Part shown: positions 1-12,069 of the stretch, piece after piece | Layout: each line of letters begins with the position of its first letter | How positions within the stretch are numbered: position 1 is the first letter of the stretch | IMG/VR virus record: IMGVR_UViG_3300005613_000161 | Location: 1-40,150 of that record | DNA: 40,150 bases | Reading direction: 5' to 3' (one strand) | DNA from: a virus | The notes under the pieces: generated by a model | Told to the model about the DNA's origin: nothing | The model's database searches: none | What the model saw: the letters and a program-made list of their open reading frames with translations, nothing else | Translations under genes and position numbers: made by a program

Positions 1-45
1 CTTCTAAGCCGTAGGTCATAGGTTCGAATCCTATAGGGCGTGCCA
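1..45 (+). tRNA. 3' part of tRNA-Arg(UCU), attachment-site core
   Basis: The segment reads as anticodon loop CTTCTAA (anticodon TCT), 3' anticodon strand GCCGT, five-base variable loop, T arm ATAGG-TTCGAAT-CCTAT, acceptor strand AGGGCGT, discriminator G and CCA. The 5' half of the tRNA lies outside the window. Starting exactly at the anticodon loop is typical for att cores of tyrosine integrases that use tRNA genes, and the int gene is adjacent. In the integrated state the phage-borne part would restore the host tRNA. Confidence 0.9.
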
Positions 46-123
46 TTAAGTATCAATGAGTTACGCCTTTCATCCCGTCTTTCCAATTTCATCATGGGAC
101 AGATTTGGGACTAAACCTCCGAA
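1..123. repeat. Left copy of 123-bp terminal direct repeat (attL/attP)
   Basis: Bases 1-123 are identical to 40028-40150. The repeat holds the tRNA-Arg 3' end, 24 bp of spacer and the last codons of int. Its left edge coincides with the anticodon loop, which suggests a recombination boundary rather than an arbitrary contig cut. Two TGGGAC motifs at 95-101 and 106-112, 11 bp apart, may be integrase arm sites. Confidence 0.9.
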
Positions 124-1191
124 AATCGCATCAATTTGCCTCGCATGCTCAGTTAGGTGGCTAGGCGCAAGGTGGGCATATCGCTGTACCATTTCTATGC
201 TCTCCCAGCCTCCCATTTCCTGAAGTGCAGAAAGCGGCACCCCGGATTGGATCAGCCAGCTCGCCCAGGTATGTCGCAAATCATGAAAACGGAAATCATC
301 AATGCCAGCTCGTCTTAACGCCGCGCGCCACGCAGTGTTAGAATCGACTCGCATTTTCCTCGCCGGGTCTTTGTGAACGAACACCCAGCGATGATGATTT
401 CCAATTTGTCTCCGCAGAACGGCGCAAGCGGTGTCGTTTAGAGCTACGCCAATTGCCCGGCCTGACTTGCTATCCTCCGGATAAATCCAGGCTACCTTCC
501 TCTGCATGTCGATCTGCGACCATGCGAGCTCGATGATGTTCGACCGGCGAAGGCCAGTAGTCAGCGCGAATTCCACGGTGGATTTAAGCGGCTCAGGACA
601 CTCATCAATAAGTCGCTGCGCCTGTGCGGGCTCAAGCCACCTGACTCGCTTATTCCTTTCCTGTGGCACCTTGATAACTGGTGACTTCTCTATCCACTTC
701 CAATCGCGCTCTGCAGCACGCATTAGCGCTTTCATCAGCGCCAGGTGCTTGGCCTTGGTTGAAGTAGATACAGGCTCAGCCTTCCGTGGCTCAATCGCAA
801 TTCCCTTCCTGGCAAGAGCTTCCGCTCTTAATGCCCACCGTTCTTCTGCCTTCCTGTTCGTCATCCTGCTGACTGCTGTATAAATCTTTGCCTCAGTAAT
901 GTCCTTCAGCAAAACCCCTTCAAAATGCATGAGCCAGAATCCGATCCGACCCTTGTCTGCATCGAGTGATTTCTTGTGCGCTTTCTCTTCCAGCCAGCGT
1001 AAGCACGCCTCTTCAAATGTGACCTCAGGGAAGTCTCCCAATCGGTCTATTCTCCAAAGTTCAGCTTTTCTGCGGTCGTGCAACTCCTGCGCTTGGCGTC
1101 TGTCCTTAGTCCCAAGCGACTCCTTAATTCTTTTGCCGCTTGGCGACGTGTAACTGCCGTACCAGGTTTCCCCTCGGCGGAATAATGACAT
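70..1191 (-). CDS. int: Tyrosine-family integrase
   Basis: Site-specific recombinase that integrates and excises the phage at the adjacent tRNA-Arg core. In 373 residues the catalytic set is visible: R215 in TTGLRR, K242 in DSKSGR, H303-L-R306 in HDLRHTW, W329 in GGW where many relatives have His, and the nucleophile Y338 in QRYAHLAP. The N-terminal part (about 1-50) looks like the arm-binding domain, and the middle (about 55-165) like the core-binding SAM-like domain. Its start lies inside xis, an overlap also found in P22. The last codons are part of the terminal direct repeat, so att and the 3' end of int are physically linked. Confidence 0.96.
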
Positions 1192-1418
1192 GCTGCTTTC
1201 TCCTCATGTGCATCATCCGCGCTCACCGGCACAGTGTGGATCGGATTGTTAAGCGCGGCAATACAGGCTTGGCGAGTGATTAGGTAGGGGGATTTGGTTT
1301 TTGATGGGTCTTTTCTTGTTGCCTGCAGTCTTCCTGAGCGTATCCAGCTCGTCAGCGTGGGTGCTGAGATGCCAAGGAAGTTACAGGCCTCACTTCGTGA
1401 AAGGCTGTATTTGTCCAT
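1047..1418 (-). CDS. xis: Excisionase, P22 Xis-like
   Basis: Small DNA-bending protein expected to direct integrase towards excision. Residues after the start carry a helix-turn-helix of the MerR/Xis type ([12 protein letters not shown]... [16 protein letters not shown]), followed by a [15 protein letters not shown] segment that I recognise from P22 Xis. ATG at 1418 has an AGTAGGTG ribosome site; a GTG two codons upstream (1424) is the alternative start. The gene overlaps int by 145 bp in another frame, as in P22, so xis and int are probably translated from one PL transcript. Confidence 0.85.
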
Positions 1419-1424
1419 TGGCAC

Positions 1425-1616
1425 CTACTGGATTGTGATGTTTGCCGGAGTATGTGAAGCGAGAGTTGATTGTTCAGCTATTAGCTTCACGCCTGGTTTA
1501 ACGATCTGCTCAATAATCGCCATCTTGCCTGCATATTCTTCATCATCAGCCGCGCCGAGATAGATGGTTATCATGCGGCCATCAAAGATGAGCAGGGCGC
1601 TTTGTTTTGTTCTCAT
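1425..1616 (-). CDS. Hypothetical 63-residue protein upstream of xis
   Basis: I do not recognise a family. The predicted protein starts with a short hydrophobic strand (SALLIFDGRMITIYLGA) and then an acidic stretch, giving no clear membrane segment or cysteine motif. It is tightly packed in the operon: its ATG overlaps the stop of the preceding gene as ATGA, and its stop touches the GTG candidate start of xis. This coupling supports it being translated, with a role in early lysogeny or excision only by position. Confidence 0.6.
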   Translation of the reverse strand: MRTKQSALLIFDGRMITIYLGAADDEEYAGKMAIIEQIVKPGVKLIAEQSTLASHTPANITIQ

Positions 1617-1822
1617 GCGACACCTCGTTGCCTGTCTGCTTTTATCCTGCGTTCGTAGTCTTCTGCACAGCTATCGCCGAGGCAGAAATTTCCTTTGCTG
1701 ATGGTCTCTCCACACCAATAACAGCGGCCAGTAAATACCATTGACGGCTTTGGCCGGTTGGATAAGGCGGCGAGGATAATCAGTTCTTCTTGCTCTTGTG
1801 CGTTGTCGATGATGTCAGCCAT
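1613..1822 (-). CDS. Small zinc-ribbon protein (C4 type)
   Basis: The protein has 69 residues with four cysteines at C34, C37, C47 and C52 (CYWCGE...FCLGDSC), followed by a basic helix EDYERRIKADRQR. This spacing resembles the zinc finger of short phage DksA/TraR-like or Zn-ribbon proteins, which bind RNA polymerase or nucleic acid. It lacks the long coiled coil of full DksA, so the TraR-like label is an inference. It overlaps the next gene upstream by 8 bp and the next downstream by ATGA. Confidence 0.65.
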   Translation of the reverse strand: MADIIDNAQEQEELIILAALSNRPKPSMVFTGRCYWCGETISKGNFCLGDSCAEDYERRIKADRQRGVA

Positions 1823-2036
1823 GTTTAACTCCTAATCCTAAAATGCTCTCGACATCATCAGCGCCGCAGCCGGATGCCATGATTGCTTGACCTTCATGCA
1901 GGAATACCCGAACAGGAGCAGGCATCACTCCGGTACGCTCCCACAGTGCTTGATGAAGTTTCTGCTGCAATGCATCCGTGCTAACGCGCCCGTCCGTGAA
2001 ATAGGCGCGGGGAATCCTGACGCTGATAGTGTCCAT
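1815..2036 (-). CDS. Possible DinI-like small protein
   Basis: The 73-residue protein begins with a beta strand (MDTISVRIPRAYF), then a helix rich in Leu and Gln, a second strand APVRVFLHEGQ and a terminal helix GADDVESILGL. This order, and the 'DD-x-E-x-I-L' helix, recalls the DinI family that modulates RecA filaments and is common in prophages, but the match is by eye and weak. The gene has a good ribosome site (AAGAGG) and lies just downstream of a minus-strand terminator, so it heads the last segment of the operon before xis and int. Confidence 0.6.
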   Translation of the reverse strand: MDTISVRIPRAYFTDGRVSTDALQQKLHQALWERTGVMPAPVRVFLHEGQAIMASGCGADDVESILGLGVKHG

Positions 2037-2066
2037 AGGTGTGCCTCTTATAGAGGATTCAGGTAA

Positions 2067-2089
2067 TAAAAAACCCCGCGAATGCGAGG
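2067..2089 (-). terminator. Intrinsic terminator ending the SOS cassette
   Basis: On the minus strand the hairpin CCTCGC-ATTC-GCGGGG (one G-U pair) is followed directly by six T. It lies 22 bp downstream of the 79-residue gene ending at 2111 and separates the LexA-controlled genes from the DinI-like, xis and int part. Readthrough would need N-dependent antitermination. Confidence 0.8.
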
Positions 2090-2110
2090 CTTGGGTTGCG
2101 GTTTTTTCTG

Positions 2111-2350
2111 CTATTCAAATATGTATGATGTCGCAGTTTCACTAGCTAAAGAGTATTCACCAGTTCCATCTGGGTGGCATTCAAAACTAACATTCTGTTT
2201 TACTGGCCACATAATGAAAGCATTGATGCTGTCCTCTGTTTTTGGAATGGTTATTTTTGTCAATATCTTAGTGCCTCTTTCATCATTCTGAACAGAGCGT
2301 TGTAACTCTCCATCAAAAATCATACCATTCCAATTAATTTTAATTCTCAT
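2111..2350 (-). CDS. Hypothetical 79-residue protein, third gene of the SOS cassette
   Basis: No family recognised. The start at 2350 is chosen because AAGGA lies 9 bp upstream; the longer reading frame to 2464 would run antiparallel in frame through its neighbour and has no ribosome site. The product is beta-rich, starting MRIKINWNGMIFDGELQ and ending TATSYIFE. It is the last gene before the terminator at 2067-2089 and should be co-transcribed with the LexA-box genes. Confidence 0.65.
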   Translation of the reverse strand: MRIKINWNGMIFDGELQRSVQNDERGTKILTKITIPKTEDSINAFIMWPVKQNVSFECHPDGTGEYSLASETATSYIFE

Positions 2351-2366
2351 AGTGTATGTCCTTATT

Positions 2367-2621
2367 TTATTTCTTGCCGTTTGCATCTGCCATCTGCTGA
2401 TAGCGCGGGTCGTTCGGCCCTGGGAATTTGTGGCTCTGGCCACGATAATGCTGCAGGCGTTCACGGAAGTACTCGCGCAGATGCGTAGGCTGCTCTTCTT
2501 CTACCTGCGCAGGCACAATCGGCATATTCATGCGCTCTTTGTACGCCACGCCTGACGCCGCCAAATCTACGTTAACCTTCTCGCGCTCTTCCGGTGATTT
2601 ATCCGCTATGTTGTATGACAT
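2367..2621 (-). CDS. Conserved lambdoid hypothetical protein (84 residues)
   Basis: Starts [24 protein letters not shown], a beginning I associate with a widespread lambdoid early-operon protein of unknown function. It is hydrophilic, with a central basic helix ([28 protein letters not shown]). It lies 9 bp downstream of the 86-residue LexA-box gene, so both belong to one short transcription unit. No enzymatic motif is visible. Confidence 0.7.
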
Positions 2622-2630
2622 CGCCCAGTC

Positions 2631-2891
2631 CTATATCAGCTCAAAGTCATCATCGAACGTTGCAAAGTTTAGCTCTGCAGCGCGCATCTCGAGAATAAAT
2701 TTGATGCCGTCATGTAGTGAAGTGGGCCGATCATACTCCAGAACGAAGCGATCGTGATAGGTGCGCCCTAGCCAGTACCCGCCGCCGTATTCCTTCAGGC
2801 GCTGGAAGAACACCCAGCCGCCTTCTTTGGGATGCTCTAGCGTTTCGCCTCGGTAAACGACCTGATAGCCGATGTCGTTTTTCGTAGTCAT
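2631..2891 (-). CDS. LexA-controlled 86-residue protein, candidate SOS effector or antirepressor
   Basis: First gene behind a strong promoter carrying a near-consensus LexA box that ends 17 bp upstream of its ATG. The protein is small, soluble and aromatic-rich (YQVVYRGETLEHP...GGWVFFQRL..GGGYWLGRTYHDRF), with an acidic end FDDDFELI. I cannot assign a family. Known small LexA-regulated phage proteins include Tum of phage 186 and the Gifsy antirepressors, which inactivate phage repressors in SOS-induced lysogens. That role is inferred here from the promoter and from the odd CI protein, not from the sequence itself. Confidence 0.7.
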   Translation of the reverse strand: MTTKNDIGYQVVYRGETLEHPKEGGWVFFQRLKEYGGGYWLGRTYHDRFVLEYDRPTSLHDGIKFILEMRAAELNFATFDDDFELI

Positions 2892-2908
2892 AACTCACAC
2901 CATAAAAA

Positions 2909-2952
2909 TACTGTTTATGTATACAGTATAATTATGGTTGTCTGTGAGTCAA
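2909..2952 (-). promoter_or_regulatory. LexA box over a sigma70 promoter
   Basis: The plus strand at 2909-2928 reads TACTGTTTATGTATACAGTA, which fits the LexA consensus CTGT-N8-ACAG with both flanking TA pairs. On the minus strand a promoter TTGACT (2947-2952), 16-bp spacer, TATACT (2925-2930) overlaps it, so bound LexA would cover the -10 and start point. The -35 overlaps the stop codon of the upstream gene. This gives an SOS-inducible internal promoter within the PL operon that can fire in a lysogen. Confidence 0.9.
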
Positions 2953-3452
2953 TTCCCACCATTCGGCGCTCCCGCCAACATTGCGGCGCGGCAGGCGTTC
3001 CACCCTTCAATATATCCACAATCGTGCATAGTGAGTACGCCATCGCCGGTCATTTCCTCCGGCACTGCTGGCGCTGCCTTGCGTAAATCGTCAGCTATTT
3101 TTTTCTGCAACAGCGCCTCAGTCATCCAGCCATCAACCGTGCGACCATTCACCACTGCTGGCGGGGCGGTGTAGAGCCACTCAATCTGGCATTGCTCAGC
3201 TTCAACCGAATCAGGCCAGCGCCAATCGTTGTAAAGCCATGATACTGTGTCCTTATGTCGATATCTGAACCCCACCGGCTGCGACTCCCGGTTAGCCATG
3301 CACCCTCGACTTTCCTGCCACACCTCCCATAGCTGGGCGGTTAGGCCGCCTTGATACTCGCCAGAAGCCGTCTTCTTAATACCCCAATGGCTTCTCGGGT
3401 ATTTTTTGGTAAACCACTCTTCAAACTGCTGGCGTTCGGTCGTTAGTGTCAT
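2949..3452 (-). CDS. Ead/Ea22-like protein
   Basis: The 167-residue protein starts MTLTTERQQFEEWFTKKYPRSHWG and ends with the module GYIEGWNACRAAMLAG, which is common at the end of lambdoid Ead/Ea22-like and related early proteins. Its middle holds VSWLYNDWRWPDS..IEWLYTAPP, another recurrent early-phage module. The start at 3452 overlaps the preceding stop (ATGA); the upstream extension to 3488 lies inside that gene. Function is unknown; relatives are modular and shuffled between phages. Confidence 0.75.
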   Translation of the reverse strand: MTLTTERQQFEEWFTKKYPRSHWGIKKTASGEYQGGLTAQLWEVWQESRGCMANRESQPVGFRYRHKDTVSWLYNDWRWPDSVEAEQCQIEWLYTAPPAVVNGRTVDGWMTEALLQKKIADDLRKAAPAVPEEMTGDGVLTMHDCGYIEGWNACRAAMLAGAPNGGN

Positions 3453-3688
3453 GCTTCCCCCTGCATATGCTTTTGGCAGGCTGGGCAAACCCAGCCGCCA
3501 TTAACTTTTTTCCAGCCAGCTTCTTTTGCTTCAGCAAACAGCTCGCTCATGCACGCATCAGCCGATTTCTTTGTGTCATCAGCCATAGTCCACGGATCGT
3601 TGTTATCGTCTGACCAGCATCGAGTTCCGCCATACGGTGATCGACCATCGCCGCGCTCTTCGCAACGCAATGAAATGAAGATTGCCAT
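3449..3688 (-). CDS. Small phage protein with zinc-ribbon-like cysteines
   Basis: Begins MAIFISLRCEERGDGRSPYGG and ends GWVCPACQK, with four cysteines in total, one near the start and a C-x2-C pair near the end. I recognise it as a lambdoid early protein family of unknown role. ATG at 3688 is preferred since GAGGGGG lies nine bases upstream; an ATG at 3697 sits directly on that motif. It overlaps its downstream neighbour by ATGA. Confidence 0.7.
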   Translation of the reverse strand: MAIFISLRCEERGDGRSPYGGTRCWSDDNNDPWTMADDTKKSADACMSELFAEAKEAGWKKVNGGWVCPACQKHMQGEA

Positions 3689-3689
3689 C

Positions 3690-4139
3690 CTACTCATCCC
3701 CCTCTACGGTGACCGCAAACCCGGCGGCGAGCAATATCGCCTCGACGATTTCCATTGATGGATTGCCTTCGTCTTCTGAGCTTCCAACCTTTTCAGCGAT
3801 AGTTGAGAGGTAGGCAGGATCGATAGTCCAGCCCTGGGATTTGTCATTTGCCGCAGGCAACCGCACCGGCGTAGCCAGCCGCTTTTCCAGCTCGATATTT
3901 CGCTTTAACACGTCTTTCAGCGGGCCTGTCATCTGATTGGCTTTCAGTTCATCGATAGCCATCATGATCGACTCGTTGTCGGGATTGCAGCCCAGCTCGT
4001 TGCTGATTTCTTTGAACACCTGGGATGCGTCCGCTCTGATGGCTTCCAGCTCGGCGATGCGTTTATTAGCGTCTTCTAATTCGGTTACCAGCACAGCATT
4101 ACGCTCCGCCAGTTGGCTCATAGTCAGACCCTCTGTCAT
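3690..4139 (-). CDS. Ead/Ea22-like coiled-coil protein
   Basis: The 149-residue protein starts MTEGLTMSQLAERNAVL and continues with a heptad coiled coil (VTELEDANKRIAELEAIRADAS). Its C-terminal half matches the pattern of Ead/Ea22 C-termini (PAYLSTIAEKVGSS...MEIVEAILLAAGFAVTVEGD). The start at 4139 has GGAGG upstream and overlaps the preceding stop as ATGA. The long upstream extension to 4193 is inside the neighbour and is rejected. No function is known. Confidence 0.75.
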   Translation of the reverse strand: MTEGLTMSQLAERNAVLVTELEDANKRIAELEAIRADASQVFKEISNELGCNPDNESIMMAIDELKANQMTGPLKDVLKRNIELEKRLATPVRLPAANDKSQGWTIDPAYLSTIAEKVGSSEDEGNPSMEIVEAILLAAGFAVTVEGDE

Positions 4140-4570
4140 AAATCCTCCACGTTGCTGAGTTGTTCTGCTGCCTGCGAAAACGCATCTGCCCATTTACGCG
4201 ATTCTTCTAGCGCCAAATCAGGGCGACCCTGAACCAGACATCCGACGATATAACCATGCGCTCCAATGGCCTCACTCATGAGCGCCAATCCTTCCGGTTT
4301 AATTTCTGTGGCTTCCAGCTCGGCGATGTGCTTATCCTTCGCTTCCAGCTCTGCCAGCAGGGCGAGAATGACAGCAGGGTTAGCGGCGGCGATGAATGCT
4401 GCGTTTGCGCGGTCCTGTTCGGCTGATAGTTCGTTATCACCGAAAATATCAGTCAGCATGAAATCCGCAGTCCCATCACGCATAACCCAGACTTCATTCA
4501 GTTCTGCGTCCCACGGACCCGGAGTTGCGGCCATTGCGGCCGCTTTCAGTTCGCTCAGCTTATTGCCCAT
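4136..4570 (-). CDS. Ead/Ea22-like protein with ATPGPW motif
   Basis: 144 residues. The N-terminus ELKAAAMAATPGPWDAE carries the A-TPGPW motif that marks Ead/Ea22-type proteins, followed by ANAAFIAAANPAVILALLAELEAKDKHIAELEA, the typical helical middle. Three neighbouring genes share parts of this architecture, so this is a local cluster of mosaic paralogues. It starts 4 bp after the gene ending at 4575. Confidence 0.8.
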   Translation of the reverse strand: MGNKLSELKAAAMAATPGPWDAELNEVWVMRDGTADFMLTDIFGDNELSAEQDRANAAFIAAANPAVILALLAELEAKDKHIAELEATEIKPEGLALMSEAIGAHGYIVGCLVQGRPDLALEESRKWADAFSQAAEQLSNVEDL

Positions 4571-4574
4571 CTCG

Positions 4575-4874
4575 TTACCTCACTCTGAATCCGTTGCAGT
4601 TGCGAAGGAACTCGACGATGTAGCCCTTCATTCTGGCGTGCCATTCTTTGTCGTTACCGTTGCACCACCCGTCCGGCGGAGTCCATGCCTCAACCAAATC
4701 AGCCATCTTTTTGGCCTTGGCCGGAGTAGCATAAGCCGTGTCACAGAATTTTCGCGTGTCTGTCAGCGCTTCCATGCCCGGGATATCCAGCACGCAAAAC
4801 CATGTGTGATTTGGCATTCCGACGCCAGGAATCCGTTGGTTTGGTCTTCGAATATCAACCATGCATACGCTCAT
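4575..4874 (-). CDS. Hypothetical 99-residue protein
   Basis: No family recognised. The chosen start (MSVCMVDIRRPNQRIPGVG) overlaps the preceding stop as ATGA; the extension up to 4952 would run through that gene. It has several cysteines (WFCVLD, RKFCDTAYA, GWCNGND) and a tryptophan- and proline-containing middle (VEAWTPPDGWC), but no recognisable metal-binding spacing. It is part of the uninterrupted PL-operon gene train. Confidence 0.6.
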   Translation of the reverse strand: MSVCMVDIRRPNQRIPGVGMPNHTWFCVLDIPGMEALTDTRKFCDTAYATPAKAKKMADLVEAWTPPDGWCNGNDKEWHARMKGYIVEFLRNCNGFRVR

Positions 4875-5077
4875 AATGCTTTCTCCTGGGCCTCGGCTCG
4901 CTGTGCAGCGATTGCTTTCCGTGAAAGGTAGAATGGCTCGAACGCCGCCCAACTATTCGTCTGAGTGACGAACCACATTCCGGTATGGCGTTCCTTGGCC
5001 TGAAACTGAGAATTGCTGCGCCAATGCGGCATACCCAACAACCTGCGCGCCGCTCTGTTGCTCTTACGCTTACCCAC
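4871..5077 (-). CDS. Hypothetical 68-residue basic protein, GTG start
   Basis: A GTG at 5077 is the likely start, because GGGAGGT lies six bases upstream and the stop of the preceding gene overlaps (GTGGGTAA). The product begins MGKRKSNRAARRLLG, strongly basic, then continues SQFQAKERHTGMWFVTQ and ends in a charged helix (YLSRKAIAAQRAEAQEKAL). It may bind nucleic acid, but this is only from charge. No family recognised. Confidence 0.6.
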   Translation of the reverse strand: MGKRKSNRAARRLLGMPHWRSNSQFQAKERHTGMWFVTQTNSWAAFEPFYLSRKAIAAQRAEAQEKAL

Positions 5078-5345
5078 GCCCCACCTCCCTGGCGCTGCCA
5101 ATAGGCCATGTAGCGAACTCGCCCGGCGGCAACTCTTCAGTCACATCCCTCTCAGCCCACGCCAGAAACTTCTCGCGGCTTACTGATGGGTAATGTCGGC
5201 CGAATGAAACTGATGGGCTGTCGTATTGCACGGTGGTAGCACCGATATGCAGGATTGTTCTGTCGTTAACCAAACCCATCGCGTTGCGTGGGCGCTTTCC
5301 GCGATAGGTTCTTCCGCTTTGGAGCTTCAGTTCATTTGCTGGCAT
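5070..5345 (-). CDS. Hypothetical 91-residue protein
   Basis: Starts MPANELKLQSGRTYRGKRPRN with an excellent GGAGGT ribosome site five bases upstream of 5345; the frame is open to 5483 but that part overlaps the methyltransferase. The protein is beta-rich in its first half and ends with EELPPGEFATWPIGSAREVGRG. It overlaps the methyltransferase stop by 14 bp, implying coupled translation. Function unknown. Confidence 0.65.
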   Translation of the reverse strand: MPANELKLQSGRTYRGKRPRNAMGLVNDRTILHIGATTVQYDSPSVSFGRHYPSVSREKFLAWAERDVTEELPPGEFATWPIGSAREVGRG

Positions 5346-5868
5346 CACGCACCTCCAATTCACCAATACTGTCTTTGAAGAAAGCGATCCAATGGGTGTT
5401 TGCCCGTTTTCCTGACGGATGCCCGAACGTAGGTTTCTGGTCGGTAAGTGCGAGAATTTCACTGGTTTTAATCTGCGTTTCATTCCACTTGAATATCAGC
5501 GTGCCCATTGGCTTTAGTACCCGAAATGCTTCGCTAAATCCTTTGGCCAGATCGTCGCGCCATGTCTCCCGGTTGAGTGCTCCATACTTAGCACGAAGCC
5601 AGCTGGTTTCGCCGGCGAACTCAAGATGCGGTGGGTCGAACACTACCAGGCTGAATTGTTCGTCATTGAAAGGAAGCGCGCGGAAGTCCAACAGCACATC
5701 GGGCTTGATATGCAGCTCGCGACCATCACAGAGAACATGTGATTCATCACGAATATCGCCAAACACTACGCGCGGGTCAGAGCGGTCGAACCAGAACATA
5801 CGGGAACCGCAGCACATATCCAAAATGCTTTTGCCGTCGATTGCTGGCATCACTGGGCGCTCTTTCAT
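5332..5868 (-). CDS. Phage DNA methyltransferase (class I SAM-dependent)
   Basis: The 178-residue protein has motif I as ILDMCCGSRMFWF (residues 15-27) and motif IV as DPPH (78-81), the catalytic loop of amino-methyltransferases, followed by a helix and LIFKWNETQIK strand. The size and layout match small orphan methyltransferases in lambdoid early regions, which lack a target-recognition domain and a partner nuclease. Its target is unknown; protection against host restriction or regulation of phage DNA are possible roles. ATGA overlap links it to the gene upstream. Confidence 0.85.
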   Translation of the reverse strand: MKERPVMPAIDGKSILDMCCGSRMFWFDRSDPRVVFGDIRDESHVLCDGRELHIKPDVLLDFRALPFNDEQFSLVVFDPPHLEFAGETSWLRAKYGALNRETWRDDLAKGFSEAFRVLKPMGTLIFKWNETQIKTSEILALTDQKPTFGHPSGKRANTHWIAFFKDSIGELEVRDASK

Positions 5869-6566
5869 TTGGCCTCCCGCAGCTCGGTGGCATACTGGAA
5901 AACCGCACGGCCAATCGCCCTGATCAACTCCTGCTTTTGTCCCGCCTTGTACTGCAGTGAAATTACGCCGATACGATTGGCTGCAGCTTCAACGCCAGCG
6001 ATATGTGACTCTGTGCGGATAGCTGCAAGTGCTGCGTCAGTGGCTGGGGTTTCCGGCATCTGCATGATGAATTTCCGCACTGTCTGATATTCATCGTTGC
6101 GATAGCTTCCAAAGGCGTAAATGAACGGCTTGTTGAGGTTGTGACCATTTTTATTGATGTAGTCTTTGCAACCTTGCTCGGTAAAACAGCCAGTTACAAA
6201 CACATCAATCTCTTTCATAGCGTATCTATCCCAGCCCTCCCTAACTTCATATTTGCCCTGATAGATAGCCTCCAAGCGCCGATACTGTGTCTCTGTGGCT
6301 TCGACATAATTGCCACTCTGGTTTTCAACCCAGCAAATACGGTCGCAGTCGTGGTCTTCAGAACTGATGATTTCCCGCTTGGTCATGACTGCAAAAAATG
6401 GCTGGTCAGTTATGCGGTTATCTTGGGTTCGGATTAGCTCGCCGATAGCGCTCAGTTCAGAACGCTCGCGCTTCAGTGCCGCATTCTCCACAGCCAGCGC
6501 ATTAACTCGATCGGCCAGCGCATCGCGCTCAGCCTTTAGGGCTTCATAGGTCAATACTTCGGTCAT
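5865..6566 (-). CDS. Ead/Ea22-like protein with N-terminal coiled coil
   Basis: 233 residues. A leucine/valine heptad region at about 1-40 (YEALKAERDALADRVNALA) leads into a central domain rich in aromatic and acidic residues (PFFAVMTKREIISSEDHDCDRICWVENQ...). The C-terminal ATDAALAAIRTESHIAGVEAAANRI pattern is the standard Ead/Ea22 tail. The central domain resembles modules inserted in other lambdoid proteins, showing mosaic assembly. ATGA overlaps join it to genes on both sides. Function unknown. Confidence 0.75.
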   Translation of the reverse strand: MTEVLTYEALKAERDALADRVNALAVENAALKRERSELSAIGELIRTQDNRITDQPFFAVMTKREIISSEDHDCDRICWVENQSGNYVEATETQYRRLEAIYQGKYEVREGWDRYAMKEIDVFVTGCFTEQGCKDYINKNGHNLNKPFIYAFGSYRNDEYQTVRKFIMQMPETPATDAALAAIRTESHIAGVEAAANRIGVISLQYKAGQKQELIRAIGRAVFQYATELREAK

Positions 6567-6742
6567 AGGTCATCCTTAGCCCGCACCACAGCATCAACTG
6601 GCAGGCATTCGTAAGAAGAGGGGAGTTTTTGTGCGGCGATGTCAGCAGTACAGTTCTGGTAATCCGGGTAGATGTAGCCCGCAGATTGATAGCTGCAGAT
6701 ATCCGCGCCGCTTGTGCAGATGAGAAGAAATAGTCCGAACAT
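6563..6742 (-). CDS. DUF1482-type small secreted protein
   Basis: A 59-residue reading frame starting MFGLFLLICTSGADICSY, with a short hydrophobic leader, paired cysteines (C9, C16, C31, C46) and the end YECLPVDAVVRAKDDL. This is the pattern of DUF1482 proteins from lambdoid phages (hydrophobic start, 'C-x-PVE-x-IIR' near the end). It overlaps the next gene by ATGA. The cysteines and leader suggest export and disulfides, but no function is known for the family. Confidence 0.75.
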   Translation of the reverse strand: MFGLFLLICTSGADICSYQSAGYIYPDYQNCTADIAAQKLPSSYECLPVDAVVRAKDDL

Positions 6743-6750
6743 GATGCTTC

Positions 6751-7083
6751 CTATTCAGTTTCGCTAAAACGCCATTTCTGGCTGCTTTCAAGCGACATGC
6801 CGAGTTCCTTAGCCTTCTGGTCAGCCTTCCAAAAATCAGGGATTCTCTGCCCGTCTGGAAACTCCCAGCAGGTGCCGACGATGCGAACCATTCGAGTTGC
6901 TTTGACGGCCTTCTGCGCCGGAGTTTTACTTAATACCGGTCGAAGTTCAGGCAATAAAAAAGCCGCGTTTTTCGCGGCTGTATTGGTCATCATTTTGTTG
7001 GCGCGTTCGTGAGTTTCTCCGCGCTTTAGGGCGTCAAAAGCCGCAAGGCATCCCGCGACTATTTCCGCGTATTGTTCTTTCAT
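6751..7083 (-). CDS. Hypothetical 110-residue protein
   Basis: No family recognised. An N-terminal helix (MKEQYAEIVAGCLAAFDALKRGE) is followed by a segment (TNTAAKNAAFLLPELRPVL) whose codons also form a terminator-like hairpin, and then by a beta-rich part (VRIVGTCWEFPDGQRIPDFW). It is 28 bp downstream of ssb. The hairpin means that expression of its second half and everything downstream would depend on N antitermination, if the terminator is active. Confidence 0.65.
   Translation of the reverse strand: MKEQYAEIVAGCLAAFDALKRGETHERANKMMTNTAAKNAAFLLPELRPVLSKTPAQKAVKATRMVRIVGTCWEFPDGQRIPDFWKADQKAKELGMSLESSQKWRFSETE
6954..6979 (-). terminator. Terminator-like hairpin inside a coding sequence
   Basis: On the minus strand AGCCGCG-AAAAA-CGCGGCT is followed by six T, a perfect seven-base stem with U-run. 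It lies in frame inside the 110-residue gene. In N-modified transcription it would be bypassed; without N it would cut the PL transcript just after ssb. Confidence 0.7.
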
Positions 7084-7111
7084 GATTGATTACCTGCGGC
7101 TTTGAAGCTGC

Positions 7112-7567
7112 CTAGAATGGGATGTCGTCTTCGAAGTCCATAGGCGGCTCATTCGACGGTTGATGTTTATTTTGCTGCTTAGGTGGGGACTGCTGATTGC
7201 CAGATTGTGATGCTTCTTGCTTGCTTCCAATCATCTGCATCACACCGCCGACATTGACATGAATCTCTATCGTATATCGCTCAGCTCCAGCCTGATCTTC
7301 CCACTTGCGCGTTGTAAGCTTGCCCTCGATATAAACCTGCGAGCCTTTTCGGAGATATTCTCCTGCGACTTCAGCAAGCTTTCCAAACAGCACCACGCGG
7401 TGCCATTCAGTCTTCTCCTTTTGCTCGCCAGATTGTTTGTCACGCCACGATTCAGAGGTGGCAATTGTCAGGTTGGCAATAGCGCCGCCATTTTGCGTGT
7501 AGCGAACCTCTGGGTCTTTACCAAGGTTGCCAAGTAAAATCATTTTGTTAACGCCACGACTTGCCAT
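7112..7567 (-). CDS. ssb: Single-stranded DNA-binding protein
   Basis: 151 residues with the bacterial SSB fold: [24 protein letters not shown], the ESWRDKQSG loop, [13 protein letters not shown] and [16 protein letters not shown] Gln/Pro-rich linker follows from about residue 115, then the acidic tip DFEDDIPF that docks SSB-binding partners. Its start overlaps the Sak4 stop (TAATG). The pairing with Sak4 fits published work that Sak4 recombinases need an SSB partner, so both probably form the phage annealing system. Confidence 0.96.
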
Positions 7568-8439
7568 TATGCTGCCTCACTATTCTGCTCAATTTCCGCC
7601 TTGCGGATGTCATATATTTCTTTGGCTTTTGCCTGATATTCCGTCCCGCGCAGCGTGCGCCATGCCTCTTCAAATAAAGCCTTCAGCTCATCAATATTTC
7701 CGGCTTTCGCTGCGGCTTGCGTGAATACCTTCAGTGACTCTTCCGCCGGGTTCACGCCTGACTCAAGCCAGCTAAGAAGCTGCTTTCCTGTCTGCTCGCT
7801 TAGAACTACTGGGTCTGAATTGCTGAATAGCTTCGTCCTGTCCTTGCTGGCGATCGCATGATGCGTTTCATGCCCTATATCTAGGACGGTTGTGAATTCG
7901 TACTCGACCCCATCTCGCTGTTCTGACTTCATGCCAAGCTTAGCGACCTTTTTCCGGCCGTTCTCTTCTACCTGAGCCGTTTCAGTCTTGCTGCGCATAG
8001 TTGCGATGATGTGCATTGGCGAGCGCAGAATTGCATCAAGGAAGAGGCGATGGCGTGGGTTTATCTCACTCCATGCTGACCAGGAGTTTCCGCGAAACTT
8101 CGCTTTGGCGATTGTGTCTACCAGTTCCAGGCATCCACCTACACCACTCCATTCATGCGTGATACTGTCAAGAACCAGCGTGTCATATCCGGCTTGCTCA
8201 GCTGCGTTAATCGCTTCTATGAAGCGCTCAGGCGCAAAAGGCGGCTCCAGCTCAAGCACGTCAAAATCAGCAACGTCAGAGTAGAGTGAAGCGCTTCCTT
8301 TCTCGGTATCTAGCACGGCAATTTTTCCACCAATCCCTTTGGCAACAAGAAGCGCGCTATATGTCTTCCCTGAACCACTTGGCCCGGTAAGTGCCAGCCG
8401 TAGCTTGGCTTTCTTTCTCATGGCTTTTTCAAATTTCAT
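7567..8439 (-). CDS. Sak4-type RecA-like ATPase / annealing protein
   Basis: 290 residues with Walker A GPSGSGKT (19-26) and Walker B TLVLDS (about 88-93), a compact RecA-like core and a helical C-terminus. Such proteins, adjacent to ssb in lambdoid PL operons (as in HK620), belong to the Sak4 family of single-strand annealing proteins replacing Erf or Red-beta. A ribosome site AAGAGGT precedes the ATG. It should act in recombination and concatemer formation on phage DNA. A general phage nucleotide-binding ATPase is the conservative label. Confidence 0.85.
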
Positions 8440-8448
8440 GGCGACCTC

Positions 8449-8616
8449 TTAGCTAAAGTTTCCTGCGAATTCATCCCAAGTAACGGACGGGCTTTGACGT
8501 TCCGAACCGTTCCAACGAGCATCAGTCTGCACCTGTGATTCGGTGAGTTGTCTCTCCAATTCTGACGTCATGTGAGAGATAAATTTCTCATCGCTATCAA
8601 GCACTACGCTGCTCAT
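8449..8616 (-). CDS. Hypothetical 55-residue protein
   Basis: A short frame starting MSSVVLDSDEKFISHMTSELE and ending WDEFAGNFS. It is acidic and mostly helical, without known motif. Support comes from context: its ATG overlaps the stop of the preceding gene (ATGA) and the next gene starts 9 bp after it with a ribosome site placed in between. It lies between the CIII segment and the recombination genes. Confidence 0.6.
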   Translation of the reverse strand: MSSVVLDSDEKFISHMTSELERQLTESQVQTDARWNGSERQSPSVTWDEFAGNFS

Positions 8617-8813
8617 GCAACCGCCTTATTTTCTGTGACCGTATATCCATTCTCTGCAAGCCACTCGAACACAGGTTTGAGGTCGAGTTGGTTCATGATC
8701 TGCTTCTCATCAACATGACCGAACAAAGCGACACCGTCCGCCTCAATGCGAACCTCACCTTGTCGCTGTCCAGCCTTGGCGTGATATTCGGTGCATACGA
8801 ATGTCATTTTCAT
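8613..8813 (-). CDS. Hypothetical 66-residue protein
   Basis: Starts MKMTFVCTEYHAKAGQRQGEVRIEADG and ends FEWLAENGYTVTENKAVA. No family recognised; two short strands followed by a helix suggest a small folded domain. GGGGG lies five bases upstream of 8813, with a second possible ATG two codons later. It overlaps the 35-residue frame upstream by a few bases, which fits the coupled arrangement of this operon. Confidence 0.65.
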   Translation of the reverse strand: MKMTFVCTEYHAKAGQRQGEVRIEADGVALFGHVDEKQIMNQLDLKPVFEWLAENGYTVTENKAVA

Positions 8814-8917
8814 TTCATCCCCCGATAGAAAAGAGAGTTAGCAAGCTGGAATAGGGTGTTGTCGTTCTTCTCTTTGGCGAGCAGGGCGAGAAGCTGCAGT
8901 GTTCTTGTCATGTCCAT
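8810..8917 (-). CDS. 35-residue protein in the kil position
   Basis: The frame starts MDMTRTLQLLALLAKEKND and ends FYRGMK. Its ATG overlaps the cIII stop as TAATG and GAGGT lies upstream, so it is coupled to cIII. In lambda the gene directly after cIII is kil, which blocks FtsZ assembly; the start MD-x-T and a later LF-x-x-A-x-x-x-x-Y pattern are loosely similar, but the protein is shorter than lambda Kil (47 residues). The Kil label is only positional. Confidence 0.5.
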   Translation of the reverse strand: MDMTRTLQLLALLAKEKNDNTLFQLANSLFYRGMK

Positions 8918-9054
8918 TAGGGCTCACCTCTTTGATTAAGAGTGTCTTTCAACCACCGGCCAATACAGCGCATCCGGCGGGTGATGATTTCGAGCAGGGA
9001 TTCATGTAGCTGGAAGGCACCCATGCGAGCGCCTCCCGCGATTGCGAAAATCAT
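8917..9054 (-). CDS. cIII: CIII lysogeny protein
   Basis: A 45-residue protein beginning MIFAIAGGARMGAFQLHESL and continuing LEIITRRMRCIGRWLKD, matching the lambda/P22 CIII pattern (AIAG..., then an amphipathic helix E-S-L-L-E-x-I-T-R-x-x-R). CIII inhibits the FtsH protease, stabilising CII and favouring lysogeny. The start has AGGAG upstream. It sits in the standard place in the PL operon, downstream of N. Confidence 0.88.
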   Translation of the reverse strand: MIFAIAGGARMGAFQLHESLLEIITRRMRCIGRWLKDTLNQRGEP

Positions 9055-9078
9055 GGGTGACTCCTGAAAGCGTTTTGA

Positions 9079-10047
9079 TTAGTAGGTGATACGGATGGCT
9101 GATACTTCGCCTTTAGCGATGGCGGTGATGCATTTTTTGGCGCAGTCTTCTGGTACGCCAGCAGAGATTAAATCTGCCAAAGCTTTGTTATTTACTTTTT
9201 TGCGATGCTCGATATCTGCGGCTCGTTTCGCAGCTTCATCGGCAATTCGCTTCTCTTCTGCCAGTCGAGCTGATTCTTTCGCTTCAGTTTCTCGCTTCAG
9301 CTTATCAGCGGCTTCCTGTGCTTTGCGCTGCTCCGCCGCAATGGCTTCCTGCTTGTCACGCTCAGCCTTCTGTTGCGCCTCAATTCGCAGGCGCTCAGCT
9401 AGCTCCGCTGCCTCTTTGGCTTCACGCTCTGCACGCTCCCTTGCTGCTTGCGCTTCAGCTTCACGTCGCGCTGCAGCTTCAAGTTCAGCCTTTGCCTTCT
9501 GCTCTGCTTCGATGCGGGCTTGTTCTGCTGCTTGGCGCTTTAACTCTTCCTCACGGGCGATGCGCTGGCGCTCGGCTTCTGCTTTTGCCTCGGCAACTTC
9601 TCGGTCATATTTCTCATTAAGCAGCAGGGCGACTTCATGATCTGATTCAACCTGCTTGGCTAGCTCTTCAGCTGCGCGCTTGACCTCCTCTTCTTGCTTG
9701 ATCCGCTCTTGCTCATTTTCCCACTCAGTCAATGGTCGGCGCGTCTCATCACGAAGTGCGTCGCACGCATCAACGAACCGCTTAATTTCTTGCTCAGCAG
9801 GCTTTACAGCCTCTTTAAGCCTCTTAAGGTACTCGCGCCCTGGTTTTTCTACTGCAGTCTTACTGCGGCTTACCTGTGCAGCCAAGGAGGCAACGCGATC
9901 ACGCCCTTTCTTAGTGCTTAGGTCTGGCGCTTCATTTACGCTTGCCTTGATGTGCTCAAGATAAGCATCGAGGCCATTTGGGATGTACAGCGCCGGAGCT
10001 TGTTCCGGCTTAATTTCGATAAAGGTTAAATCGATTGACTCGCTCAC
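9079..10047 (-). CDS. TolA-like long coiled-coil early protein
   Basis: 322 residues. The N-terminal 90 residues form a folded region (LTFIEIKPEQAPALYIPNGLDAY..), then about 190 residues are almost pure Ala/Glu/Lys/Arg heptad coiled coil, and the last 45 (NNKALADLISAGVPEDCAKK...) form a small terminal domain. Lambdoid phages carry such a gene between tL and cIII, often labelled TolA-like because of composition. No signal peptide is present, so it is cytoplasmic and unrelated in function to TolA. Role unknown. Confidence 0.8.
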   Translation of the reverse strand: MSESIDLTFIEIKPEQAPALYIPNGLDAYLEHIKASVNEAPDLSTKKGRDRVASLAAQVSRSKTAVEKPGREYLKRLKEAVKPAEQEIKRFVDACDALRDETRRPLTEWENEQERIKQEEEVKRAAEELAKQVESDHEVALLLNEKYDREVAEAKAEAERQRIAREEELKRQAAEQARIEAEQKAKAELEAAARREAEAQAARERAEREAKEAAELAERLRIEAQQKAERDKQEAIAAEQRKAQEAADKLKRETEAKESARLAEEKRIADEAAKRAADIEHRKKVNNKALADLISAGVPEDCAKKCITAIAKGEVSAIRITY

Positions 10048-10107
10048 GGCATCACTCCTGTTGATTGATAGGTATTCATTGCTGAACCAACTCGTAAATT
10101 GGCTTAG

Positions 10108-10136
10108 CGATGGGAATAAAAAAGCCGCCAGGCGGC
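10108..10136 (-). terminator. tL-type terminator, possibly bidirectional
   Basis: AGCCGCC-TG-GGCGGCT forms a seven-base stem followed by a T-run on the minus strand and by GTTTTT on the plus strand. It lies downstream of N and the 113-residue gene, where tL1 lies in lambda, and is the first barrier that N-modified polymerase must pass. Confidence 0.8.
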
Positions 10137-10196
10137 TGTTTTTATAATTTATTCAGCTATTTTCTGTGCCTTCGTCATCATGAAAAAACACGACAG

Positions 10197-10538
10197 TTAG
10201 GCTGTCTGTTGGCGAGCTATGCCATTAATGAACTTGATAAAGTCTATTAAACTCCTTCCTTTAACTTTCAAACCAAATCTATTAATAATTATCTCTTTGG
10301 CATCACATAACCGCATATGCCCCGACTGGACTATTAATGAAAGCCCCATTGCTACATCAGCAATTTCATTTGACTCGGTGGCTGTTAAATTCCACGTTCC
10401 TACAAAATCGTCTGGCACCTTCATATCCAACTGACGAACCCAGACGGCGGTGCCACTTGCTGTTTGATGGACGCCAAAAACTACAAATCGTTTTTCACTT
10501 CCTGCGTATTTGTACACGCCACCAACTTTGTATTTCAT
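10197..10538 (-). CDS. Hypothetical 113-residue protein in the P22 gene-17 position
   Basis: The protein starts MKYKVGGVYKYAGSEKRFVVFGVH with several beta strands and ends with helices (SLIDFIKFINGIARQQ). I do not recognise a family. It follows N by 3 bp with a GAGGT ribosome site and precedes the tL terminator. P22 keeps gene 17, involved in overcoming an exclusion system, near this location, but I see no clear sequence identity, so that is only a positional parallel. Confidence 0.65.
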   Translation of the reverse strand: MKYKVGGVYKYAGSEKRFVVFGVHQTASGTAVWVRQLDMKVPDDFVGTWNLTATESNEIADVAMGLSLIVQSGHMRLCDAKEIIINRFGLKVKGRSLIDFIKFINGIARQQTA

Positions 10539-10541
10539 GGG

Positions 10542-10802
10542 TCACCTCGCTGTAATCGTTTCTGTTTGCTTGCGATGCCCAGCTGCGAACATCGCCACCT
10601 CTGGCAAGCACATCGCGCCGCCTTCAGCTGACTCACGAACTGGCCGAGGGCATGCTTTGTATTCAATAAGCGAAAGCGCCTTGGCAACTCGCGAATTCCC
10701 AACCAGTGCCGAGGCCACATTGCGAGCCAGGCTGATGTCTTTGTTACGCTCTGCTCGATGTGCGATTGCTCGAGCCAGCTTCTTACGTTCTTTGCTGTTC
10801 AT
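10542..10802 (-). CDS. N: N-type transcription antitermination protein (P22 gp24-like)
   Basis: An 86-residue protein with an arginine-rich N-terminal helix (MNSKERKKLARAIAHRAERNK) for boxB RNA and a C-terminus (EGGAMCLPEVAMFAAGHRK..TITAR) that I recognise from the P22 N protein gp24. It should bind nutL and nutR RNA with NusA and RNA polymerase so that transcription passes terminators in both early operons. It is the first gene of the PL operon. Matching boxB hairpins with loops TGATTCG and TGCTTCG are present at both expected sites. Confidence 0.88.
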   Translation of the reverse strand: MNSKERKKLARAIAHRAERNKDISLARNVASALVGNSRVAKALSLIEYKACPRPVRESAEGGAMCLPEVAMFAAGHRKQTETITAR

Positions 10803-10957
10803 GTGGATTTCTCCGTTAGTTAGCTTTGGTGATGTGGTGGCCGGTGCTGATCTCCGACCTGAAACAGTTACAGCATCATCGCTGCCTGCAACACCTGTGC
10901 ACTTCAGCGCGCATCAGCCTGAGCATTCACCACACCCCAAAGCCAACTTCACTTTGG

Positions 10958-10998
10958 TGAGACCGAATCAGTCTCAATCTGGATTGTTAAAGAAGCAG
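10958..10998 (-). promoter_or_regulatory. nutL (boxA and boxB)
   Basis: On the minus strand boxA-like TGCTTCTTTAACA (10985-10997), close to the rRNA boxA, is followed after eight bases by the hairpin TGAGAC-TGATTCG-GTCTCA (10958-10976). Placement between PL and N, and the match of its loop with nutR, support the call. The rest of the 10803-11065 leader holds one more hairpin (CCAAAG/CTTTGG, 10936-10956) and no gene that I can support. Confidence 0.8.
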
Positions 10999-11065
10999 CC
11001 TGACTTCATGTCTGGCGCGGCTGGTTGTTCCGTTTGCCGCATCGATGTTTCGTTTCGATGACTTC

Positions 11066-11125
11066 ATTTAAAACCATGGTTGTATTTATGTCAACAACCG
11101 AAGTTGTAAATATAGGCGTGGTTGT
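11066..11125 (-). promoter_or_regulatory. PL promoter with OL operators
   Basis: On the minus strand TTGACA (11089-11094), 17-bp spacer, TTAAAT (11066-11071) forms PL. Two 14-bp operator-like sites match ACAAC-N4-GTTGT: 11070-11083 (AAAACCATGGTTGT, between -35 and -10) and 11094-11107 (ACAACCGAAGTTGT, at the -35). Further GTTGT half-sites follow at 11120-11147. The same motif occurs at OR, so these are the CI and Cro binding sites. Confidence 0.85.
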
Positions 11126-11257: not shown

Positions 11258-11992
11258 TCAAGGAAGAACTGCGTACCAGAAAACACGACCAATAATTTCA
11301 ACTTCGTTAATATCCTTCTCCTCCGGCTCGTACTCGGCCGAATTGTAGCTTCTTAGGCTTATCCTATCCGGCCCAACACGATAAAGAACCCGGATGCGCT
11401 TCCATCCGTTCTGGTTGATGGCATAAAGCTTTCCATCAACTAGCTTCTTGTCGTTCGTGTTGACCGCTATCTCAGTACCGTCTGGTATGTTTGGCTCCAT
11501 ACTGTTGCCGCGAGCTGGGAAGCACAAAACTCCTTTGCCATCGGTACTAGCGCCAACCTGGCGCAGCGTGGCTTTGGAGAATCTCAATTTTTCCCCATCA
11601 TATTGTTCTTCGTTATAACTTCCGTCCCCAGCGGCGAGCTCAATGTCTCGCAAAAAAGGCACCTCTACTTCATCCCTGAGCAAAGGGGTATTTCTATCCC
11701 ATGAAGCACCAGCTTCCCACTCTTCAAACGGCGGTGTAGCTGAATCAGGGTGATGCTTTGAATAAGAGCTATCACTTTCATCCCTCATCGGCCCAGATTC
11801 TTCACTGAGCCATTCAGGACGAACATTCAATGCCCTGGCGATCTCCACGATTTTAGTCGACGTTTTTGCTTTTCCAGAAGCTAGCTTCTGTATTGCAGCC
11901 TGTGACACACCAACCAAATCGGCTAGTGCGGACTGCGTCAGGTTTGCGGCCAACATGGCGGCCTTCAATCTTTGAGCGAGAGTCATTTTCAT
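11258..11992 (-). CDS. cI: CI/C2-type phage repressor with S24 peptidase-like domain
   Basis: The maintenance repressor of lysogeny. From ATG 11992 (244 residues; ATG 11986 is also possible) it has an N-terminal helix-turn-helix (about 19-40, TQSALADLVGVSQAAIQKLASG), a linker, and a LexA/S24-type C-terminal domain with Ser164 in GNSMEP and a candidate Ala121-Gly122 cleavage bond in IELAAGDG. Ungapped comparison with related repressors ('LRIKRL' pattern) puts Arg201 where the catalytic lysine should be, with K198 as a shifted alternative, so self-cleavage may be impaired. It is transcribed towards PL, away from cro. Confidence 0.93.
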   Translation of the reverse strand: MKMTLAQRLKAAMLAANLTQSALADLVGVSQAAIQKLASGKAKTSTKIVEIARALNVRPEWLSEESGPMRDESDSSYSKHHPDSATPPFEEWEAGASWDRNTPLLRDEVEVPFLRDIELAAGDGSYNEEQYDGEKLRFSKATLRQVGASTDGKGVLCFPARGNSMEPNIPDGTEIAVNTNDKKLVDGKLYAINQNGWKRIRVLYRVGPDRISLRSYNSAEYEPEEKDINEVEIIGRVFWYAVLP

Positions 11993-12004
11993 ATCCGAGA
12001 AAAT

Positions 12005-12069
12005 ACAACCTCGGTTATACGTGGTCAAACAACTATATTCTTGCCAAAATAAAACTATAGTTGTATATT
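12005..12069 (+). promoter_or_regulatory. PR promoter with three OR operators
   Basis: PR is TTGCCA (12041-12046), 17-bp spacer, TATATT (12064-12069). Operator-like 14-mers lie at 12005-12018 (ACAACCTCGGTTAT), 12029-12042 (ACAAC half-site) and 12051-12064 (AAAACTATAGTTGT), spaced 24 and 22 bp. This is the usual three-operator array between cI and cro; the one nearest cro covers the PR spacer. PRM must run leftwards from here, but I cannot fix its hexamers. Confidence 0.82.

What the first reader, a model, noticed from the sequence alone, without database searches (positions are those of the whole stretch)
2111..2952. LexA-controlled three-gene cassette inside the PL operon
A LexA box matching the consensus (TACTGTTTATGTATACAGTA) lies over the -10 of a strong minus-strand promoter and controls genes of 86, 84 and 79 residues that end at an intrinsic terminator. 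Small LexA-regulated phage genes are known antirepressors (Tum of 186, Gifsy antirepressors). This P22-like phage would then have an SOS route that does not need CI cleavage, in addition to immI. The first gene is the best effector candidate.
Basis: partly seen in the sequence, partly recalled or inferred. Interest (0 to 1): 0.78.

Follow-up and report, generated by a model that had tools for sequence, protein, structure and literature searches.

The report
SOS-controlled small gene of mobile elements
A virus of bacteria carries a small gene of unknown function behind a switch that should open when DNA is damaged, and relatives of that gene behind the same switch recur in unrelated phages and plasmids, so it probably acts on the bacterial cell rather than on this phage's own repressor.

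Summary
A near-consensus LexA box (2909-2928) overlaps the -10 of a minus-strand promoter and heads genes of 86, 84 and 79 residues that end at a terminator. LexA control of gene 1 is strongly supported by comparison: of 120 non-identical full-length relatives with at least 600 nt upstream, 90 have a LexA box 5-30 nt before the start and 22 follow dinI in a LexA-headed operon. Gene 1 is PHROG 2100, a conserved family without known function or fold. 66 theta loci outside the cassette have no box upstream, so the switch belongs to gene 1. Gene 3 was found in two further viral contigs, both times in this cassette.

The antirepressor reading is not supported. Gene 1 has no detectable similarity to Tum or the Gifsy-2 antirepressor ORF, phages with at least 94% identical gene 1 carry unlike repressors, and relatives sit on conjugative plasmids, including R6K. 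Best reading: a host-directed, SOS-timed effector of mobile elements, target unknown; no biochemistry was possible. For one member (Serratia phage BZS1) the box had been noted, and LexA control predicted, in print.

The parts
2947..2952 (-). -35 hexamer TTGACT
   Evidence: a TTGAC-like hexamer recurs at this place in the boxed upstream regions of relatives
2925..2930 (-). -10 hexamer TATACT, spacer 16, overlapping the LexA box by 4 nt
2909..2928 (.). LexA box TACTGTTTATGTATACAGTA (18 of 20 to the palindromic consensus, 8 of 8 in CTGT/ACAG)
   Evidence: kept before relatives of gene 1
2631..2891 (-). gene 1, 86 aa, PHROG 2100 (function unknown)
   Evidence: pN/pS 0.062 among 15 close coding sequences
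2367..2621 (-). gene 2, 84 aa, DNA polymerase III theta subunit (HolE/Hot) homologue
   Evidence: Pfam PF06440 E 5.7e-33; P1 Hot structure 1se7 E 1.8e-26
2111..2350 (-). gene 3, 79 aa, no family found; also in two other viral contigs, in the same cassette
2071..2092 (-). intrinsic terminator after gene 3
11258..12028 (-). context: CI-type repressor, HTH plus Peptidase_S24

Best explanation
The promoter at 2925-2952 is held off by LexA in the lysogen and opens when RecA causes LexA cleavage. It then makes gene 1 and, in this phage, a theta subunit homologue and a third small protein, ending at the terminator so that int-side genes are not expressed. Gene 1 belongs to a family carried by many kinds of enterobacterial mobile elements and, in the loci held here, nearly always placed under LexA, either with its own box or as a downstream gene of a dinI operon. 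I infer that its product acts on a conserved host component during the SOS response (RecA/LexA, replisome or cell-division machinery), as DinI, PsiB or GIL01 gp7 do, and not on one phage's repressor. Theta added in cis would reinforce Pol III proofreading or stability in the same window. Shown by sequence: box, promoter-like site, gene order, family-wide LexA linkage, spread across element types, purifying selection, theta identity. Inferred: LexA binding, SOS induction, host target and effect.
For: Of the 80 best gene-1 loci in viral contigs (80 of 111 found), 71 have a box with 8/8 core within 250 nt upstream; the other 9 have a box (7 or 8 of 8 core) 440-581 nt upstream with dinI between. 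Over all sets, 112 of 120 full-length non-identical entries with at least 600 nt upstream are under a box, and 47 of the 53 clusters (90% identity) that the 122 full-length entries form; background is 7 boxes in 1.41 Mb of other sequence in the same loci. Theta outside the cassette: 0 of 66 with a box. A later scan of 394 genomes gave 5 places in 4 genomes; one is a known locus, and all 5 have a box within about 520 nt. Hosts are diverse: P22-like, P2-like after dinI, SSU5, MOBP/MPF_T plasmids and R6K. pN/pS is 0.062.
Against: No LexA binding or SOS induction was measured. No fold or sequence match names a target. In R6K the box is degenerate (second arm ACAT, 16/20), so LexA control is not universal. 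8 of 120 entries, in 6 of 53 clusters wholly so, lack a box in either standard place. In P2-like phages gene 1 follows dinI, the place that the antirepressor takes in Gifsy phages (PMC3121763), which keeps an antirepressor role open there.
Confidence: 0.6

Rival explanations
1. Gene 1 is a LexA-controlled antirepressor (Tum/GftA/AntC type) that inactivates CI after DNA damage.
For: Small size and LexA control as for GftA; in Gifsy phages the operon is dinI-antirepressor-irsA (PMC3121763, passages and section 9), and in P2-like phages gene 1 follows dinI. Some phages with nearly the same gene 1 have repressors whose S24 part looks degenerate and which would need such help (G002, G003, G006, G007, G008, read by eye).
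Against: No similarity to the Gifsy-2 ORF in the GftA place or to the Gifsy and 186 ORFs scanned; repressors of phages with at least 94% identical gene 1 are unlike one another, and this phage's own CI keeps the S24 domain and an Ala-Gly site; relatives on conjugative plasmids including R6K.
Confidence: 0.12
2. Gene 1 tunes the SOS response itself by binding LexA or RecA, like GIL01 gp7, DinI or PsiB (a narrower form of the best explanation).
For: 25 of 133 entries stand behind dinI in a LexA-headed operon; LexA-controlled expression would give feedback; GIL01 gp7 is a precedent for a small phage protein that binds LexA (PMC4551915, abstract).
Against: No sequence relation to DinI, and DinI is not among the 50 rows shown of either structure list. 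R6Kdrd, a derivative of R6K that I did not examine, still induces SOS on transfer (PMC2958807, passages), which speaks against a strong block like PsiB's if it keeps the gene.
Confidence: 0.25
3. Gene 1 is an SOS-timed inhibitor of host division or replication, or an exclusion function against other elements.
For: Phage genes of that kind exist: 186 fil and dhr inhibit division and replication, and orf97 behind the SOS promoter p95 blocks 186 infection (annotation).
Against: No similarity to these (186 region scanned); persists on plasmids, where a lethal gene would need tight control, while the R6K box is degenerate.
Confidence: 0.2
4. The theta homologue is the effector and gene 1 is its accessory.
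For: Theta follows gene 1 in this cluster and, at 43-72% identity, in L024, L025, L026 and L248.
Against: 66 of 66 theta loci outside the cassette have no box within the 700 nt (310 nt for L156) looked at; only 16 of 133 gene-1 entries have theta within 2.5 kb; in L332 box, gene 1 and gene 3 stay while theta is reduced to two pieces; P1 hot is annotated with its own late promoter and not the nearby LexA site.
Confidence: 0.04

Closest known systems
phiBZS1_p37 of Serratia phage vB_SspM_BZS1
   Same: Same family (65% identity), LexA box before the gene; its authors predicted LexA control and listed homologues (PMC7556043, passages)
   Different: Reported there for one phage and without function; that phage's theta gene (p70) lies elsewhere, among late genes (PMC7556043, passages)
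LexA-controlled antirepressors Tum (186), GftA/GfoA (Gifsy), AntC (N15, named in PMC3121763)
   Same: Small LexA-controlled phage genes, dinI in the same operon or fused to it
   Different: No sequence relation detected for the 186 and Gifsy-2 proteins (AntC was not compared); not tied to one repressor
P1 Hot / E. coli HolE (theta)
   Same: Gene 2 matches both over 60-74 residues
   Different: In P1 hot has an annotated late promoter; the LexA site is annotated for lxr and humD nearby. Here theta lies second behind a LexA promoter
GIL01 gp7
   Same: Small phage protein tied to LexA (PMC4551915 abstract)
   Different: Bacillus phage; the proteins were not compared here
DinI
   Same: SOS gene of mobile elements, co-operonic with gene-1 relatives
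   Different: No sequence relation

Membership tests
LexA regulon gene | near-consensus LexA box overlapping the promoter | tested here: met
LexA regulon gene | box kept in relatives | tested here: met
   112 of 120 entries, 47 of 53 clusters; late additions; degenerate in R6K
LexA regulon gene | LexA binds and SOS induces | not testable with these tools
   needs gel shift and fusion in lexA+ / lexA(Ind-)
LexA-controlled antirepressor (Tum/GftA) | sequence similarity to Tum or GftA | tested here: not met
   GftA taken as the 73-aa GTG ORF between dinI and irsA of Gifsy-2
LexA-controlled antirepressor (Tum/GftA) | goes together with its cognate repressor | tested here: not met
   unlike repressors with at least 94% identical gene 1 (11 of 16 such loci examined); plasmid copies
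LexA-controlled antirepressor (Tum/GftA) | binds repressor and induces prophage | not testable with these tools
   bench test
PHROG 2100 (gene 1) | profile match over full length | tested here: met
   E 6.2e-34, residues 4-85 of 86; 49 of 49 aligned members match
Pol III theta / Hot (gene 2) | PF06440 above gathering score | tested here: met
   112.9 bits against 34.6; NCBIfam 105.5 against 97
Pol III theta / Hot (gene 2) | binds epsilon and replaces theta | not testable with these tools
   bench test
DinI (gene 1) | sequence profile similarity | tested here: not met
   hhalign probability 0.05% against one P2-like phage DinI
any known fold (gene 1) | confident structural match | tested here: inconclusive
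   model pLDDT 85.5, pTM 0.74; no Foldseek match at E 0.001 or better, best VIA Z 3.8

The most novel reading that the evidence does not exclude
PHROG 2100 is an unrecognised, dedicated SOS effector shared by temperate phages, phage-plasmids and conjugative plasmids of Enterobacterales, R6K included. It targets one conserved host component of the SOS or replication machinery. Its invariant core (Y13, QR at 30-31, GGG at 36-38, W40, G42) would make the contact, and its acidic F-D-D-D-F-x-L tail may imitate the acidic tip of SSB. The phages here couple it to a theta subunit so that the replisome is re-equipped while the host is in SOS.
Probability: 0.3. Interest if true: 0.8.

Novelty: new variant of a known kind. 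Interest (0 to 1): 0.56.

Why it matters
Here a whole uncharacterised family is linked to LexA and crosses from phages to conjugative plasmids. A single host target reached by phages and plasmids during SOS would tell what these elements need from a damaged host. The copy on R6K, a plasmid long used in the laboratory (recalled), makes it directly testable. A theta subunit under LexA would be one more way in which a phage touches the replicase core.

Tried and rejected
Antirepressor by homology: the gene-1 profile was run against six-frame ORFs of at least 30 aa of Gifsy-2, of 26000-48491 of Gifsy-1, of the 186 region and of the P1 region; nothing but the two P2-like controls passed the inclusion threshold. 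Gifsy-1 1-20000 was searched at 40 aa and up. hhalign against the Gifsy-2 ORF between dinI and irsA found nothing.

DinI-like: rejected. Defence-system reading: weak PADLOC matches (PtuB in 5 of 49 members, best E 0.0023, and two smaller ones), not followed, as the Pfam and NCBIfam scans of the same 49 members gave nothing.

Structure: Foldseek against PDB and BFVD gave nothing at E 0.001 or better; the best VIA row is Z 3.8 (a Holliday junction resolvase), in the range that the tool calls uninformative.

SSB-tip mimicry: the tails of 43 of 53 cluster representatives fit a loose acidic-F/Y-x-L pattern of my own, but the last residue varies (F, T, I, V, E, Q), whereas the SSB tip ends in Pro-Phe (as in the window's own SSB). 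It is kept only as a speculation.

LexA-controlled theta as the core: rejected as the box does not follow theta. Three of the 66 theta loci do hold a box, but 2.9-3.0 kb upstream (L133, L159) or downstream (L165).

Gene 3 as a private gene: I first thought it confined to one sibling (fetched loci only). A scan of viral contigs found it in two contigs, the sibling (100%) and L332 (66%), there too behind box, gene 1 (66%) and a theta reduced to two pieces; phage records gave none.

Rows dropped before counting: one search took entries of 80-110 aa with at least 600 nt upstream, 120 of 133. The other 13 are nine short fragments, L052 and L054 (given an over-long start by the script; both stand in dinI operons) and L244 and L270 (short upstream). 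The lists behind it were capped: 80 of 111, 80 of 521 and, for theta, 80 of 528. The background count left out L001, L283, L284 and the 720 nt before each family member; loci overlap one another, so it is a rough rate. The box alignment (86 contexts) was chosen by having a box, so its invariant core is partly by construction.

Papers: 10 of 10 searches used. None holds the PHROG name. BZS1 p37 is the one earlier mention that I saw; most papers were seen as listings only.

Full report
What is there. The minus strand of 2071-2952 holds a promoter-like site (TTGACT, 16 nt, TATACT) whose -10 overlaps a LexA box by 4 nt. The box, TACTGTTTATGTATACAGTA at 2909-2928, is the only one in the window within 3 mismatches of the palindrome; 100 shuffles gave none. 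Three ORFs of 86, 84 and 79 codons follow, and a terminator stands at 2092-2071. The bare pattern CTG-N10-CAG occurs 20 times in the window (13.3 expected), so the longer consensus is what carries the weight.

What the genes are. Gene 1 matches PHROG 2100 over nearly its whole length (E 6.2e-34) and nothing significant in Pfam, NCBIfam or the PDB. [quoted passage not shown] Gene 3 has no family. It was found in no phage record and in two viral contigs: a sibling, IMGVR 2906490466_000002 (identical), and IMGVR 2784746735_000001 (L332, 66%), where it also stands behind a box (15 of 20, 8 of 8 core), a gene 1 (66%) and a theta reduced to two pieces.

Is LexA control real? Relatives of gene 1 were collected from viral contigs (80 of 111, 80 of 521), genomes (26 loci) and, for examples, phages and plasmids. 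In the first 80 viral loci, 71 have a box with all eight CTGT/ACAG bases within 250 nt upstream. The remaining nine have one 440-581 nt upstream, with dinI between box and gene 1. Pooling all loci held then and removing identical protein-plus-upstream copies leaves 133 entries from 212 matches: 94 with a box 5-30 nt before the start, 25 in dinI operons, 14 others. Of the 120 that are full length with 600 nt or more upstream, 90 and 22 fall in the two classes. The 122 full-length entries form 53 clusters at 90% identity; 33 and a further 14 are in the two classes. Of the 6 clusters outside, three (L047, L192, L200) have a box 200-321 nt upstream, L270 has dinI but its contig ends too early, and L179 and L194 have none. 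The rest of the same loci holds 7 such boxes in 1.41 Mb. A later scan of 394 genomes of one order gave 4 genomes and 5 places, one of them already known. All five have a box within about 520 nt: three directly before the gene, one in a dinI operon (that copy has a stop inside), one about 300 nt away. Theta is different: 66 theta loci outside the cassette (of the best 80 of 528) have no box within 700 nt upstream, 310 nt for L156. So the switch travels with gene 1.

Selection. Among 15 distinct coding sequences close to the window's gene 1, pN is 0.0115 and pS 0.187, ratio 0.062. In 49 diverse members, M1, Y13, Q30, R31, G36-38, W40, G42, F49, P56 and L85 are invariant. The model is four strands and a C-terminal helix with a low-confidence acidic tail (pLDDT 85.5, pTM 0.74). 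No library searched holds a convincing match.

Where it lives. Phage BZS1 and the P22-like phage SI8, both towards xis and int; P2-like phages behind dinI; the phage-plasmid SSU5 and a 110-kb circular Klebsiella phage; MOBP/MPF_T conjugative plasmids; and R6K (IncX2, locus tags R6K_RS, 39,872 bp). In R6K an ORF absent from the distributed gene table, which is incomplete by design, matches the profile at E 1.4e-34. PLSDB types 46 of the 443 matching plasmid records as conjugative and 383 as non-mobilizable, and at least one of the conjugative ones, pKN-LS6, carries the gene beside a terminase gene. The R6K box is degenerate in its second arm, and one IncFIB plasmid has a frame-broken copy. In 394 genomes of the order only 4 had it, which fits a mobile accessory gene. 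The carriers named belong to enterobacterial genera (recalled), except a Capnocytophaga contig that I take for contamination.

The antirepressor idea. The precedent is sound: in Gifsy phages the LexA operon is dinI, a small antirepressor, irsA, and in 186 the LexA promoter p95 expresses tum (PMC3121763, passages and section 9; annotation). Three results speak against it here. There is no similarity. Phages with gene 1 at least 94% identical have unlike repressors: of 11 such records examined (of 16 such loci), two have the window's CI (98-99%), four share another whose N-terminal 99 residues or so are about 45% identical to it and whose S24 match is partial, one has a relative of that (38%), two have a third type without a blastp match to the window's CI at E 0.001, one a fourth at 26%, and in one neither search found a repressor. 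And conjugative plasmids carry the gene. This phage's CI has an S24 domain and, as I read it, an Ala-Gly site and an active-site serine, so it should be cleavable. Not excluded: that gene 1 is an antirepressor in the P2-like phages, where it stands in the Gifsy place, or that one protein disables several unlike repressors.

Mechanism. The likeliest reading is an SOS-timed effector on a conserved host component, with RecA/LexA modulation the most natural special case because of the dinI neighbourhood and the GIL01 gp7 precedent (PMC4551915 abstract). R6Kdrd still induces SOS on transfer but did not raise integrase expression, for which the authors mention, and think less likely than low sensitivity, an uncharacterised R6K function (PMC2958807, passages); whether R6Kdrd keeps the gene was not examined. 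The theta homologue behind gene 1 recurs in separate versions (43-72% identity to this one) in L024, L025, L026 and L248, so the pairing may be useful, but it is optional: 16 of 133 entries have it.

Known or new. A LexA motif before one member, BZS1 p37, its predicted LexA control, and homologues in Salmonella phages SE16, 29485, SF3 and Klebsiella phage phi12.1 were noted in 2020 (PMC7556043, passages). In the listings and passages of ten paper searches I saw no function, no family-wide treatment and no mention of the plasmid members. I therefore call it a new variant of a known kind: SOS-controlled accessory genes of mobile elements.

Noticed in passing
L330 1624-1926 (R6K, NZ_LT827129): A PHROG 2100 gene lies between a hypothetical protein and ddp1, absent from the distributed gene table; its LexA box is degenerate in the second arm.
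   Followed up: partly
L332 545-1237: Box, gene 1 (66%), a theta reduced to two pieces, and gene 3 (66%) in the same order as here: theta decays while its neighbours stay.
   Followed up: partly
L024 and L041 (same contig IMGVR_UViG_2927693043_000001): Two different copies of the gene-1 family near the two ends of one 45-kb contig, each with its own LexA box.
   Followed up: no
L259: Two LexA boxes: one heads the dinI operon, a second stands 22 nt before the gene-1 relative.
   Followed up: no
L187 (Capnocytophaga gingivalis contig): An enterobacterial-type gene-1 relative with LexA box in a Bacteroidota assembly, probably contamination.
   Followed up: no
window 35133-37346: immI-like region with two Arc-family repressors, a Bro-N protein and a pRha protein.
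   Followed up: no
window 7112-8439: Phage SSB ending in DDIPF next to an AAA_24 ATPase.
   Followed up: no
window 1613-1822: DksA-like zinc-finger protein (PHROG 54), second ORF after the terminator.
   Followed up: no
L001 (phage P1) 2457-3454: P1 hot lies next to lxr and humD, which share an annotated LexA site, but hot has an annotated late promoter.
   Followed up: partly
L329 (IncFIB plasmid), L202, L254 and L324: Broken copies of the gene-1 family behind LexA-like boxes.
   Followed up: no
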